A stretch of 64,000 nt of DNA, taken from contig NZ_PCPG01000001.1 of assembly GCF_002979655.1 (NCBI RefSeq), forward strand, positions 744,001-808,000. Direction: 5' to 3'. Position 1 is the first letter of the stretch; each line of letters opens with the position of its first letter. The translations under genes were made by a program, and so were the position numbers. Shown piece by piece: positions 59,996-64,000 of this stretch. Source of the DNA: Microbacterium sp. MYb45. GTDB lineage: Bacteria; Actinomycetota; Actinomycetes; Actinomycetales; Microbacteriaceae. The notes beneath the pieces are model-generated. The model made no database searches and had not been told where the DNA came from. It saw only the letters and a program-made list of their open reading frames with translations.

Positions 59996-60011
59996 GTAGA
60001 GCCAGCTCTAC
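59996..60011. promoter_or_regulatory. Inverted repeat, likely response-regulator site
   Basis: GTAGAG-CCAG-CTCTAC, perfect 6-bp arms with 4-bp centre, 58 bp before the ABC transporter start and 51 bp from the kinase start. The spacing fits binding by a dimeric NarL-type regulator (inference). Confidence 0.5.
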
Positions 60012-60068
60012 CGCGACTGTCCACTCCGGTCTCTCGCGCCGCCTCCCGGTGCGCGCTCGAATGGGGGC

Positions 60069-60809
60069 GTGATCGAACCATTGATTCGCGCCGCGAACCT
60101 CGAGAAGACATTCCCCGGAACCGGTCGGAAGGAGCCGCGCGTCCCCGTCCTGCGCGGGATATCCCTCGATGTGCATCCCGGCGAGATGGTGAGCATCGTC
60201 GGTCCGAGCGGTTCCGGCAAGTCGACCCTGCTCTACTGCCTCTCGGGTCTCGAGCCCTACGACACCGGGAGCGTCCACCTCGCAGGACGAGAGCTCTCGT
60301 CCCTTCGGCGCGGCGCGCTCGCCGCCCTGCGTCGCCGTCACGTCGGATTCGTGTTCCAGTCCTTCAATCTCATCCCCTCGCTGACGGCGCGGGAGAACAT
60401 CGCGCTTCCCGCCCGGCTTGCGCGGCAGAGCGTGCAGCGCGCGGACGTTGACCGTGCGCTCGCCGACGTCGGCCTGACGGACCGTGGCGGGCATCGCCCC
60501 GGACAGCTCTCGGGCGGCCAACAGCAGCGGATCGCCATCGCCCGCGTGCTCGCCCTGCGGCCGGACATCGTGTTCGCGGATGAACCCACCGGATCGCTCG
60601 ACACGGCCACGGGCGCCGACGTGCTCCGCCTGCTTCGCGCATCTGCGGGCGATGGCAGATCCGTCGTCATGGTCACCCACGATCTCGAGGCCGCCGGGCT
60701 CGCCGATCGCGTCCTCGTGCTCCGCGACGGGAGCATTCATCGAGAACTGCGACGGCCCACTCCGGAACAGGTTCTCGAGGCGATCACTCTCGCCGGGGCT
60801 TCGGCATGA
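60069..60809 (+). CDS. ABC transporter ATP-binding protein (MacB/LolD type)
   Basis: 246 residues, GTG start. Walker A GPSGSGKST (45-53), Q-loop FVFQSFNLIP, signature LSGGQQQ (147-153), Walker B IVFADEP (167-173) and H-loop VMVTHD. The class that pairs with FtsX-like permeases, often acting in peptide-antibiotic sensing or mechanotransmission. It overlaps the permease gene by 4 bp and is divergent from a two-component system, so a self-tuned export or defence module is likely (inference). Confidence 0.93.
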   Translation: MIEPLIRAANLEKTFPGTGRKEPRVPVLRGISLDVHPGEMVSIVGPSGSGKSTLLYCLSGLEPYDTGSVHLAGRELSSLRRGALAALRRRHVGFVFQSFNLIPSLTARENIALPARLARQSVQRADVDRALADVGLTDRGGHRPGQLSGGQQQRIAIARVLALRPDIVFADEPTGSLDTATGADVLRLLRASAGDGRSVVMVTHDLEAAGLADRVLVLRDGSIHRELRRPTPEQVLEAITLAGASA

Positions 60810-62149
60810 TCGCCCTGATCGTCTCCGATCTGATGTTGCGGTGGCGCGTCTGGTTCGGAGTGCTCACTGTGACCGTCACCTCCGGATTCGTCGGTGCGCA
60901 CGCCGCCGGTCTGCTCGAGACCGGTGCCTTCCACGGTGGCGCCGTGCAGGAGGGGCTCGCCAGCACCAGCTCCGCTGTGATCATGTTCGCGGCCATCACA
61001 GCGCTCATCGTGCTCGGTTCCACGGCGAACCTCACGATCGCCCTGCAGCTGCGGGACTACGCGCTGTGGCAGCTCGTCGGCGTCCGGCCCGCGCTGGTCG
61101 CCGTCGTCGTTCTCACCCAGCTCGGCGTCATCGGCATCATCGGCGCGTTCGTCGGCTGGCTCCTCGCGCTGCTGATGTTCCCGTCCCTCTTCGTCTGGGT
61201 GTTCCGGGAGTGGCCCGAGATGCAGGGCGTGAGCCTCCACCTCGGTATCGGCAGCGGCCTCATCGTGATCGCCGCGGTTGCGCTCACCGTGGTTCTCGGA
61301 GGACTGCGCAGCGCGCGACGGGCGAGCCGGACCCCGGCCATCGAGGCGCTGCGTGATGCGGAACCCCCGCGGATCCGGATGGGATGGTTCCGCATCATCC
61401 TGACCGTGTCCGCGCTCGGAGGCACCACGGCGCTCGCGATGAACCTCGACGGCGACGCGTCGATGTCCGCTTTCTCGGGGCAGGCCATCCTGTTCACGCC
61501 GTTGATCGCGGCCGCCCTCGCCGCCGCGGGGCCGGTGGTGTTCCCTCTCGTCCTCCGCGGCTGGACTTCGCTACTGCCGACAACGGTCTCCGCGACGTGG
61601 TTCCTCGCCCGGAACTCCGCCCGTTACCGCCTGGCACGCTCGAGCGCGGCGATCGGTCCGCTCATGGTTGCGATCGCCCTCGCGGGCGGGCTCTACACGA
61701 CCGGCGCCACGATGGCCGCAGCGGAAGCCGCGCGAAACGGCAGCGACGCGGGATTCGATCTCGCCCCCGAGGGAGTCGTGATCCTCCTCGGCGGGCCCCT
61801 CCTCCTCGCGGGCGTGGCGGCCGCGGCGACCGTATTCATGTCCGGTCATACCCGCGAGCGGGAATTCGCGCTCATCCAGGCCGTGGGCTCCACGCGCGGT
61901 GCGATCGTGCTCACCGCGATCTGGGAAGCTGTGGCCTATGCGGTCACTGCGGCCATGTTGGGGGTGGCCGCCACTGCGGTCGGAGGCCTCGTCATCGCCG
62001 GAAAGCTCTCGCTGCCCGGCCCCGTCATCGCGTTCCCGACGATCGGGCTGATCGCCGGCGGTGGACTCGCCCTGCTCCTGGCCGCCACGGTGCTGCCGAC
62101 GGTCACCGCGCTCGGCACCGAGATTCCCCGCTCCCTCGCCGTGGAGTAG
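60806..62149 (+). CDS. FtsX-like ABC transporter permease
   Basis: 447 residues, about eight to ten membrane helices in two FtsX-type blocks; LQLRDYALWQLVGVRPALVA and REREFALIQAVGSTRGAIVL are the conserved cytoplasmic coupling stretches of each. The external loop between helices 1 and 2 is short, so it is not a BceB permease with the ~200-residue loop. ATG 60806 overlaps the ATPase gene by 4 bp. Confidence 0.9.
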   Translation: MIALIVSDLMLRWRVWFGVLTVTVTSGFVGAHAAGLLETGAFHGGAVQEGLASTSSAVIMFAAITALIVLGSTANLTIALQLRDYALWQLVGVRPALVAVVVLTQLGVIGIIGAFVGWLLALLMFPSLFVWVFREWPEMQGVSLHLGIGSGLIVIAAVALTVVLGGLRSARRASRTPAIEALRDAEPPRIRMGWFRIILTVSALGGTTALAMNLDGDASMSAFSGQAILFTPLIAAALAAAGPVVFPLVLRGWTSLLPTTVSATWFLARNSARYRLARSSAAIGPLMVAIALAGGLYTTGATMAAAEAARNGSDAGFDLAPEGVVILLGGPLLLAGVAAAATVFMSGHTREREFALIQAVGSTRGAIVLTAIWEAVAYAVTAAMLGVAATAVGGLVIAGKLSLPGPVIAFPTIGLIAGGGLALLLAATVLPTVTALGTEIPRSLAVE

Positions 62150-62238
62150 ACACAGTCGCGATCCGAGCGCGGCCGCAGGGGCTGACGCGCTCGCATACTC
62201 GCGAAGGGCCGCGACGCCATCCGGACGTTGGTGTTCCT

Positions 62239-62247
62239 TGCTATCGT
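62239..62247 (+). promoter_or_regulatory. Extended -10 promoter of the retron
   Basis: TGC-TATCGT, an extended -10 of the TGnTANNNT type. A start about 7 bp downstream (~62254) coincides with the beginning of the a1 repeat at 62252. No -35 (ATCCGG at the expected place), as usual for extended -10 promoters. Confidence 0.45.
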
Positions 62248-62251
62248 GGCC

Positions 62252-62273
62252 GCGTGCGATGGCTTGCGGACGA
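62252..62273 (+). repeat. Retron a1 inverted repeat
   Basis: Starts GCGTGCGATGGC; complementary to 62401-62422 over 22 nt, 20 exact pairs. Confidence 0.75.
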
Positions 62274-62400
62274 GGCGAGTGGTTCACGACGTGTTCCGCT
62301 CTCTCCGGGGTCACCCCGGGGTACGCAGTCTGACCTGGAACGAACGCCGCAGGCGCCTTACTGCGCTTCGCGCAGACCGGTGCCCGCACTGATGGACGAG

Positions 62401-62422
62401 TCGTACGCAGGCCATCGCACGC
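62401..62422 (+). repeat. Retron a2 inverted repeat
   Basis: Ends GCCATCGCACGC; pairs with 62252-62273. It lies 28 nt before the reverse transcriptase start codon. Confidence 0.75.
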
Positions 62423-62450
62423 CCGGCGCCCGTTCCGCGGCTGCCCTCTG

Positions 62451-63821
62451 ATGGCGCCCTCCACCGCATCACGCGTGCTGGGGCGCACGCCGCGACCGTT
62501 GCCGTCGTTGGTGGCCGCCTCTCTGGCCGACGCTTTCCTCGCCTCACAGGTCTGGGCGAAGGAGCAGCTCGTCGAGGCCGGCGCGTACGTCATGGGAGCG
62601 CGTCGCCGTTGGCTCTCTCCGCTCGTCGGCGACGTGTTGACCGCCTTCGTCCGCCCGCCTGTCGATGCCCCGCGACTGCTGACGTCGGTGATCCTCCGTT
62701 CGCCCGATTTCGCCGAAGCGGTGCGCAAAGCCGACGAGCGCCGTTCGCCGCTGCGCATCCACCACCACGTAGTCGGTCCGTCGTCGTCGCAGCCGCCCTC
62801 GGGCGCTCTTCCCCGCATCGACAGCATCCCGGATCTCGCCGCCATGCTCGATCTGGACGTCGGCCGGCTCCAGTGGTTCGCCGACACCAAAAACTGGAAT
62901 CGGCGCGCGCGCACAGGGGCCTTGCACCACTACCGGTACGAGTGGCGCACACGGCACGGGCGGATCCCCAGGTTGCTAGAGATCCCGGAGCAACGGATGC
63001 GCCGTGTGCAGCGCAGTCTCCTGGAACAGGTGCTCGGCCTCATAGCCGTGAACGATGCCGCCCACGGTTTCATGCCCGGTCGCAGCGCGGCCACCGGGGC
63101 GGCGCTCCACACGGGGGCCGACATCGTCATATCCCTCGACCTCACCACGTTCTTCTCACGCGTGACGGGCGGTCGCATCTACGGAACACTTCGGCAGTCG
63201 GGACTGTCCGAACCCGTCGCGCACGTCGTGACCGGGCTGTGCACCAACGCCGTTCTTCCGCGCGTGCTTGCTGCCATGCCACCGGGCGGATCATCCGACG
63301 AGCGGTTCGCCCTGCGTCGGGCTCTGGCCACGAGTCATCTGCCGCAGGGCGCTCCCTCCTCGCCGATGCTTGCCAACCTCGCCATCCGGCGCCTCGACTC
63401 ACGGCTGACGGGATGGGCGGATGCCGTCGACGCGACCTACACGCGATACGCCGATGACCTCGCGTTCAGCGGCGGTCCGAGACTCGCGAAGCGACCTGAT
63501 GCCTTCATCCGTGGTGTGCAGCGGATCATCGAGGACGAGGGGCACGTTGCCAACCCGCGCAAAACGAGGGTCCGACGCCAGGGCGTCAGGCAGAGCGTGA
63601 CCGGAATCGTCGTCAACCAGCGAACGAATGTCTCACGAGACGACTATGACCGGCTCAAGGCGACGATCCACAACTGCGTCGTGCACGGTCCGCGCAGTCA
63701 GAATCACCGCCGACTCGACGATTTCCGCGCACATCTGCTCGGCCGCATCTCGTGGGTCGAGAGCCTGAACCCCCAGCGAGGCGCGAAACTCCGGGCGGAG
63801 TTTCTGCGTATCCGTTGGTGA
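62451..63821 (+). CDS. Retron reverse transcriptase
   Basis: 456 residues. The reverse transcriptase core (~160-455) has motif A SLDLTTFF (D230), motif B LPQGAPSSPMLANL, catalytic YADD (Y333-D336, in TRYADDLAFSGG) and the retron hallmarks NDAAH (201-205, spacing of NAxxH) and VTG (383-385, in SVTGIVVN). Residues 1-~130 are a separate, mainly helical domain of unknown role, found in this kind of RT in actinobacteria and myxobacteria as far as I recall. No ribosome-binding site is visible before ATG 62451. Rare codons ATA (twice) and CTA occur, unlike its neighbours, hinting at transfer. Confidence 0.92.
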   Translation: MAPSTASRVLGRTPRPLPSLVAASLADAFLASQVWAKEQLVEAGAYVMGARRRWLSPLVGDVLTAFVRPPVDAPRLLTSVILRSPDFAEAVRKADERRSPLRIHHHVVGPSSSQPPSGALPRIDSIPDLAAMLDLDVGRLQWFADTKNWNRRARTGALHHYRYEWRTRHGRIPRLLEIPEQRMRRVQRSLLEQVLGLIAVNDAAHGFMPGRSAATGAALHTGADIVISLDLTTFFSRVTGGRIYGTLRQSGLSEPVAHVVTGLCTNAVLPRVLAAMPPGGSSDERFALRRALATSHLPQGAPSSPMLANLAIRRLDSRLTGWADAVDATYTRYADDLAFSGGPRLAKRPDAFIRGVQRIIEDEGHVANPRKTRVRRQGVRQSVTGIVVNQRTNVSRDDYDRLKATIHNCVVHGPRSQNHRRLDDFRAHLLGRISWVESLNPQRGAKLRAEFLRIRW

Positions 63822-63896
63822 CCGGTGCGACCAGGCACGAGTGGCCAAGTGACCCTACCGTCGGACGACCGGCACGGATGGCGCAGGATGGAGGCA

Positions 63897-64000
63897 TGCG
63901 CAGATCACGACACATCACTCCTGCCGTTCGCACGTCGGACGTGCGCGACGACGCGCCGACCCCGGCAGACGTACTGCGGTATCTCGTCCACCTTCCGGAT
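63897..64000 (+). CDS. Unidentified CDS, 5' part only
   Basis: 34 visible codons from ATG 63897, eight bases after a GGAGG-like ribosome-binding site (GATGGAGGC), reading MRRSRHITPAVRTSDVRDDA and then PTPADVLRYLVHLPD. It runs out of the window. 75 bp after the reverse transcriptase gene on the same strand, so it could be the retron partner gene, but the gap and own ribosome-binding site leave independence equally possible. Family not recognisable from this stretch. Confidence 0.5.

What the first reader, a model, noticed from the sequence alone, without database searches (positions are those of the whole stretch)
62451..62840. N-terminal helical extension of the retron RT as possible effector
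The first ~130 residues precede the RT core and have no recognised motif. No separate effector gene is visible between the permease and the RT. If the extension is conserved with the RT, it may be the effector or an effector-docking domain.
Basis: inference. Interest (0 to 1): 0.6.

Follow-up and report, generated by a model that had tools for sequence, protein, structure and literature searches.

The report
Retron enzyme's conserved helical front domain
The extra piece at the front of this bacterial reverse transcriptase is a real, conserved small helical domain that belongs to a stripped-down retron made of one RNA and one protein; what the piece does is open, but it looks more like a docking or assembly part than a toxic enzyme.

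Summary
The RT (62451-63821 +, 456 aa) has a conserved ~90-residue all-helical N-terminal domain (NTD, residues ~19-107) and a short variable linker; from ~126 on it is ordinary retron RT. Directly upstream lies a retron ncRNA (62252-62422; a1/a2 inverted repeat, 27 of 40 pairs with compensatory changes). ncRNA plus RT form the whole shared unit: against seven Microbacterium loci in other contexts, DNA identity stops near -239 and at or just past the RT stop. The ncRNA model matches all 51 large-flank homologous loci, which sit in at least 30 gene contexts; no retron effector family was seen next door. The NTD accompanies this RT family (PADLOC RT_other/RT_outgroup) in Actinobacteria and Burkholderia. 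The one III-A RT examined (with a PRTase effector gene) lacks it; one type XIII RT has an unrelated N-terminus. But nothing shows the NTD is toxic: no invariant residue, no significant Pfam, PDB-sequence or fold match, and its best conserved positions look structural. An extended N-terminus of unknown function is already published for myxococcal retron RTs. Best reading: a non-enzymatic docking/assembly module of a two-part 'orphan' retron; effector status stays open.

The parts
62212..63822 (+). self-contained retron cassette (promoter region, ncRNA, RT)
   Evidence: blastn identity between the window locus and L006, L009, L109, L110, L007, L105, L106 begins at -239 to -215 and ends at or within ~20 nt of the RT stop; no further match of 80 nt or more in the flanks
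62238..62247 (+). promoter-like extended -10 (TTGCTATCGT) just before the ncRNA
   Evidence: same or nearly same in most Microbacterium loci printed; promoter role is inference
62252..62422 (+). retron ncRNA (msr-msd); model R1 match 62253-62421
   Evidence: 176.2 bits, E 9.5e-32 (R1 was built from an alignment that includes this copy); 27 of 40 pairs with changes on both sides, 96.0% cells paired against 80.2% in shuffles
62252..62273 (+). a1 arm of inverted repeat
   Evidence: pairs with 62401-62422
62401..62422 (+). a2 arm of inverted repeat
62274..62274 (+). candidate priming guanosine (context CGAGG)
   Evidence: inference from position at the end of a1 and the published TAGC/CAGC/GAGC/CAGA contexts
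62451..63821 (+). retron RT, 456 aa, YADD at residues 333-336 (63447-63458)
   Evidence: Y333, D335, D336 invariant in the 41 aligned homologs
62505..62771 (+). N-terminal helical domain (residues ~19-107)
   Evidence: AF2 pLDDT block means 91-94 for residues 21-90; conserved in 41 aligned homologs
62772..62825 (+). variable linker (residues 108-125)
   Evidence: length 15-89 residues among 41 homologs; low pLDDT

Best explanation
The region encodes a conserved, non-enzymatic helical domain fused in front of the RT of a two-part retron (ncRNA + RT, no linked effector). Shown: the ncRNA structure, the domain's conservation and predicted fold, and the absence of a linked effector in the loci scanned. 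Inferred: the RT makes msDNA from the ncRNA and stays bound to it, as other retron RTs do, and the NTD is a protein-protein module of that particle. It either assembles RT-msDNA units or docks a partner encoded elsewhere in the genome. Any output of the retron would therefore pass through this protein or a partner in trans.
For: Unit boundaries contain only ncRNA and RT. ncRNA found with 51 of 51 large-flank homologous loci and with 73 of 80 smaller loci, many of them the same genomes (of the 7 misses, 4 are weak hits of other RT kinds, 2 are cut by a contig end (L045, L139), 1 is an unclassified distant RT). At least 30 gene contexts among 51 loci. Neighbours include housekeeping genes such as recA and dnaB, and no Pfam family occurs in more than 3 of 133 ORFs. 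NTD homologous from Actinobacteria to Burkholderia (hhalign probability 85%, 82 columns). Purifying selection on residues 1-107, omega 0.12-0.52 in eight pairs against 0.12-0.19 for the RT part. Best conserved NTD positions are W35, W54, F29, P70, D72, G49, which look like core and helix-cap positions rather than an active site. Net charge varies from -7 to +10 in 40 NTDs, which does not suggest a constant nucleic-acid-binding face. No stand-alone NTD seen: of 58 genomes 5 have good matches, all in frames of 495-546 aa that also have the ncRNA.
Against: No partner protein, complex or msDNA has been observed. A weakly conserved helical domain could also be a fast-evolving toxin. AF2 did not model the RT core (pTM 0.30), so contacts between NTD and RT cannot be judged. 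A partner in trans was not searched for. The insignificant rows of the PDB profile search include the DNA-binding protein HU (E 0.40 and 0.46), and 28 of 40 NTDs have a positive net charge of 2 or more except as listed, which leaves room for nucleic-acid binding.
Confidence: 0.5

Rival explanations
1. The NTD is the effector itself: a small fused toxin kept silent by the RT-msDNA and released by phage infection, a fourth kind of single-gene retron next to the Toprim, protease and TIR fusions.
For: No other protein in the cassette; no dedicated retron effector seen beside it; NTD evolves faster than the RT; the one III-A RT examined, which has a dedicated effector gene, lacks the NTD (L118).
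Against: No invariant residue such as a catalytic site would need (A6: no invariant column, only W35, P70 and L77 nearly invariant); no significant match to any solved or viral fold.
Confidence: 0.22
2. The NTD is an RNA-handling part of the RT: it grips the msr or the a1/a2 stem and is needed for msDNA synthesis, with no role downstream.
For: NTD and ncRNA family occur together wherever the upstream DNA is present in RTs of this family; window NTD is arginine-rich (net +6); mean net charge of 40 NTDs is +2.8.
Against: Charge sign is not conserved (-7 to +10); other retron RTs make msDNA without such a domain (general knowledge; their profiles align from residue 118 on).
Confidence: 0.2
3. The extension is a passive or mis-annotated N-terminus without function.
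For: Residues 1-18 are poorly conserved and low in pLDDT.
Against: Residues 19-107 conserved over two phyla, purifying selection, confident fold.
Confidence: 0.03

Closest known systems
Myxococcal retrons Mx162, Mx65, Sa163, Ne144 (Simon et al. 2019, PMC6868368, passages read)
   Same: RT with an extended N-terminal region of unknown function; msr-msd RNA with complementary ends, a general retron feature
   Different: Mx162 and Sa163 are reported as probably vertically inherited, the Microbacterium cassette sits in differing contexts; homology of the two N-terminal regions could not be tested (no myxococcal sequence reached)
PADLOC RT_other / RT_outgroup profiles
   Same: window RT and the Tsukamurella, Burkholderia, Dietzia, Modestobacter and L102 relatives score 478-577 bits with RT_other, N-terminus included
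   Different: profile names only; no function or effector is given with them
Single-gene retrons with fused effector (I-C Toprim, XI protease, XII TIR)
   Same: one protein carries RT plus an extra domain
   Different: extra domain is N-terminal and short, and no Toprim, protease or TIR family matches it; their PADLOC best stretches lie at residues 162-440
Type XIII (Methylobacterium L115) and type III-A (Sulfitobacter L118) retrons
   Same: related RT core
   Different: the XIII N-terminus does not align with the NTD; the III-A RT has only ~30-40 residues before the part aligned with our residue ~120 and has a PRTase_III-A neighbour

Membership tests
retron | structured ncRNA with a1/a2 inverted repeat next to the RT | tested here: met
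retron | RT with YADD and the VTG of region Y (VTG recalled) | tested here: met
   YADD at residues 333-336; VTG in QSVTGIVVN; alignment
retron | region X NAXXH (14 of 16 validated retrons per PMC6868368) | tested here: inconclusive
   window has GAALH: A and H kept (A217 nearly invariant, H220 invariant), N replaced, as in the two published outliers
retron | msDNA with 2'-5' branch is made | not testable with these tools
   needs nucleic-acid analysis
PADLOC RT_other / RT_outgroup | near full-length profile match including the N-terminus | tested here: met
   577 and 541 bits
myxococcal extended-N-terminus retrons (Mx162 group) | extended N-terminal region before the RT motifs | tested here: met
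   ~107 residues plus linker before the retron RT core
myxococcal extended-N-terminus retrons (Mx162 group) | sequence homology of the N-terminal region to Mx162 | not testable with these tools
   no myxococcal RT was reached; the one genome-contig scan returned only Microbacterium and Modestobacter
single-gene effector-fusion retrons | recognisable effector domain fused to the RT | tested here: not met
   no Pfam or NCBIfam domain in residues 1-140 above cut-off
type XIII retron | type XIII N-terminus | tested here: not met
   window matches RT_XIII only from profile position 108; hhalign of the NTD with the L115 N-terminus finds nothing
known small helical folds in PDB | fold match of the NTD | tested here: inconclusive
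   Foldseek best E 3.7, VIA best Z 4.8 over 59 residues, rmsd 3.3

The most novel reading that the evidence does not exclude
A minimal two-part retron in which a ~90-residue helical N-terminal domain of the RT is the whole output module: a new, non-enzymatic effector or adaptor, mobile as a 1.6-kb cassette and shared by Actinobacteria and Burkholderia.
Probability: 0.25. Interest if true: 0.7.

Novelty: new member of a known kind. Interest (0 to 1): 0.42.

Why it matters
How retrons without any linked effector work is an open question. This family gives it a clean test object: one RNA and one protein in 1.6 kb, found in many backgrounds, with a well-bounded extra domain that can be deleted or expressed alone. 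If the domain proves to be an effector, or an adaptor for a protein in trans, it would explain the orphan retrons.

Tried and rejected
Rfam found nothing in 60000-64000, so the ncRNA was modelled from homologs instead. ARAGORN found no tRNA in the window.

A neighbour effector was looked for and not found. All-against-all comparison of ORFs of 80 aa or more within 6 kb in 51 loci gave two clusters that span 11 and 7 locus groups, at scattered distances and on both strands. The first holds ABC-type ATPases, judged from the window copy; the second was not identified. Next came a cluster of ORFs over the ncRNA itself, and several clusters from one genus with conserved synteny (L078-L081). A downstream minus-strand ORF shared by L087, L093, L097 and L101 is a TetR regulator in the three copies tested. 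The alpha/beta hydrolase downstream in the window (63896 on) lies outside the unit, which ends at the RT stop or within ~20 nt of it in L006, L009, L109 and L110. Effectors under 80-100 aa or over 900 aa, or further than 6 kb away, would have been missed.

NTD identity: Pfam, NCBIfam, PDB sequences by profile (best E 0.11) and Foldseek PDB and BFVD gave nothing significant. The best structural row, bacteriocin NKR-5-3B at Z 4.8 over 59 residues, is at the level that the tool calls a common arrangement and is not used. The fold search with the whole model tested mainly the RT palm.

Type XIII as a home was considered: a phylum scan with RT_XIII gave 8 of 396 genomes, none matching before profile position 107, and the XIII N-terminus in L115 is unrelated. 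Viral contigs: no relative. Phage records: 14, RT-core matches from residue 122 on. Plasmid records: 280, best rows from residue 119 on in tblastn, though the N-termini of four of them proved to be of the same kind.

Dropped rows: L026, L040, L041 and L042 are weak RT-core hits of other kinds and were left out of family counts. L003-L005, L009, L012, L080, L083, L084, L093, L104 and L108-L111 were left out of alignment A4 (near-identical, truncated, uncertain start, or broken); 41 sequences were kept. L090 was left out of A6 (short). A8 used 15 of the 40 NTDs of A6. For L076, L077, L079, L081 and L085 no ATG/GTG/TTG lies within 150 nt after the ncRNA, so their rows begin at the first open in-frame codon after it. 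ORFs were picked mechanically (100-900 aa, at most two per side), and some are not genes.

Full report
What is there. The RT reads 62451-63821 on the + strand. Pfam RVT_1 matches residues 174-375. The best PADLOC profiles are RT_other (577 bits) and RT_outgroup (541 bits), both covering the N-terminal part; the best stretches of the other 23 profiles displayed (of 55 that match) begin at residue 118 or later. Solved relatives by sequence are retron RTs such as Ec86, Ec67, Ec78 and Ec83, with best stretches from residue 160 of the window protein on (profile search).

The retron is complete in its parts. Upstream of the RT lies a 22-nt inverted repeat, 62252-62273 with 62401-62422, spanning 171 nt. 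Twenty-four homologous upstream regions align with 40 consensus pairs, 27 of them with changes on both sides. 96.0% of cells pair against 80.2% in shuffles and 36.7-47.7% in slid controls. A covariance model built from them matches just upstream of the RT in 51 of 51 large-flank loci, E 8e-9 or better (24 of these contributed to the model). With smaller flanks it is found in 73 of 80 loci at E <= 0.001, many of them the same genomes. The seven misses are four weak hits of other RT kinds (L026, L040-L042), two loci whose contig ends at the RT start (L045, L139) and one distant unclassified RT (L147). It also matches upstream of the Tsukamurella, Dietzia and two Burkholderia RTs (E 2.1e-13 to 1.4e-7), and not significantly at the Methylobacterium or Sulfitobacter loci.

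How far the unit reaches. Compared with the window locus, L006, L009, L109, L110, L007, L105 and L106 share DNA (75-96% identity) only from -239/-215 to the RT stop or about 20 nt past it. L004 and L108 share the downstream side as well, L003 and L005 both sides. At the protein level L006, L007 and L105 share neighbours with one another, and so do L009 and L110, but not with the window apart from frames that run over the ncRNA. So the cassette sits in several contexts within one genus. Among 51 loci there are 30 clusters of gene context. This is a lower bound, because the largest cluster is held together partly by spurious ORFs over the ncRNA. Of 133 neighbouring ORFs from 36 loci, no Pfam family occurs in more than 3; 25 of 118 families were displayed. 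PADLOC hits are scattered defence genes in 1-3 ORFs each. None of the 24 families at E <= 1e-14, nor of the 25 of 46 displayed at E <= 1e-5, is a retron effector.

Distribution. 14 of 366 Microbacterium genomes match, the window's own included and one of them weak. 50 of 398 genomes drawn from the family match, own included, three weak. 17 of 394 drawn from the class match, own included, three weak. RTs with the RT_other profile from near the N-terminus on are also found in Tsukamurella, Dietzia and Burkholderia records (the second Burkholderia, L117, was judged by alignment).

The N-terminal domain. AlphaFold2 gives pLDDT block means of 91-94 for residues 21-90, as helices, when the domain is folded alone (mean 80.6, pTM 0.69). 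In the full model the same helices appear but the RT core fails (mean 57.6, pTM 0.30, 11 sequences), so nothing can be said on NTD-RT contacts. Information content is 1.63 bits per position for residues 19-97 against 2.55 for the RT (41 sequences). No column is invariant over 40 NTDs; W35, P70 and L77 are nearly so. Between close relatives omega is 0.12-0.52 for residues 1-107 and 0.12-0.19 for the RT part (eight pairs). Pairwise distances of NTD and RT correlate at r 0.74 over 820 pairs, so the NTD largely follows its RT. The Actinobacterial NTD profile aligns with the two Burkholderia NTDs (probability 85%, 82 columns) and weakly with the mainly Mycobacteriales set (44%, 52 columns), and not with the type XIII N-terminus. 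hhalign values for such pairs are not calibrated against a database. Foldseek finds nothing significant in PDB (best E 3.7) or BFVD (best E 0.62); this does not prove a new fold. Two marginal matches (E 0.006 and 0.009) among 58 genomes are taken as chance.

Reading. That keeps the idea alive but does not establish it. The conserved residues sit at turns and helix starts or are hydrophobic, which suits a folded interaction module more than an enzyme; this is inference from sequence and predicted helices. Charge varies in sign, with a positive mean of +2.8, and HU appears among the insignificant PDB rows (E 0.40), so nucleic-acid binding is not excluded. I favour docking or assembly (0.5) over fused toxin (0.22) and RNA handling (0.2).

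Comparison with the known. Simon et al. 2019 (passages read) state that the myxococcal retron RTs have an extended N-terminus of unknown function, that these RTs group together, and that Mx162 and Sa163 were probably inherited vertically. A 2022 review (PMC8867640, passages read) notes, citing an earlier survey, that some retrons lack a clear association with nearby effector genes. So the kind is known. What is added here is the domain's bounds, its predicted fold, its spread with a conserved ncRNA through Actinobacteria and Burkholderia, and the cassette limits. I saw no paper on the domain itself in the listings, which cover open-licence papers only.

Noticed in passing
L129, L130, L131, L138, L144 (same genome as L112), L068 (same genome as L088); exception L049/L076: In 6 of the 7 genomes of one genus (g182) that were found to carry this RT, the retron ncRNA lies upstream of the RT on the opposite strand, divergent from it; the short gap carries a palindrome CAGCCTAGGCTG in all 6, perhaps a bidirectional promoter.
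   Followed up: partly
window 62212-63822: The ncRNA-RT unit occurs in several contexts within Microbacterium with sharp ends and no other gene inside; how it moves is unknown.
   Followed up: partly
window 62334-62450; L077, L079, L081, L085: The RT reading frame is open back into the ncRNA, and in these four loci no ATG, GTG or TTG lies within 150 nt after the ncRNA end, so RT translation may start inside the ncRNA or at another codon.
   Followed up: no
L039/L043 (G443) and L142 (G842): Copies in which the RT is split into two matches, apparently broken genes; described only.
   Followed up: no
L115 6590-8395: A Methylobacterium type XIII RT frame of 602 aa with a C-terminal extension that ends in a hydrophobic stretch.
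   Followed up: no
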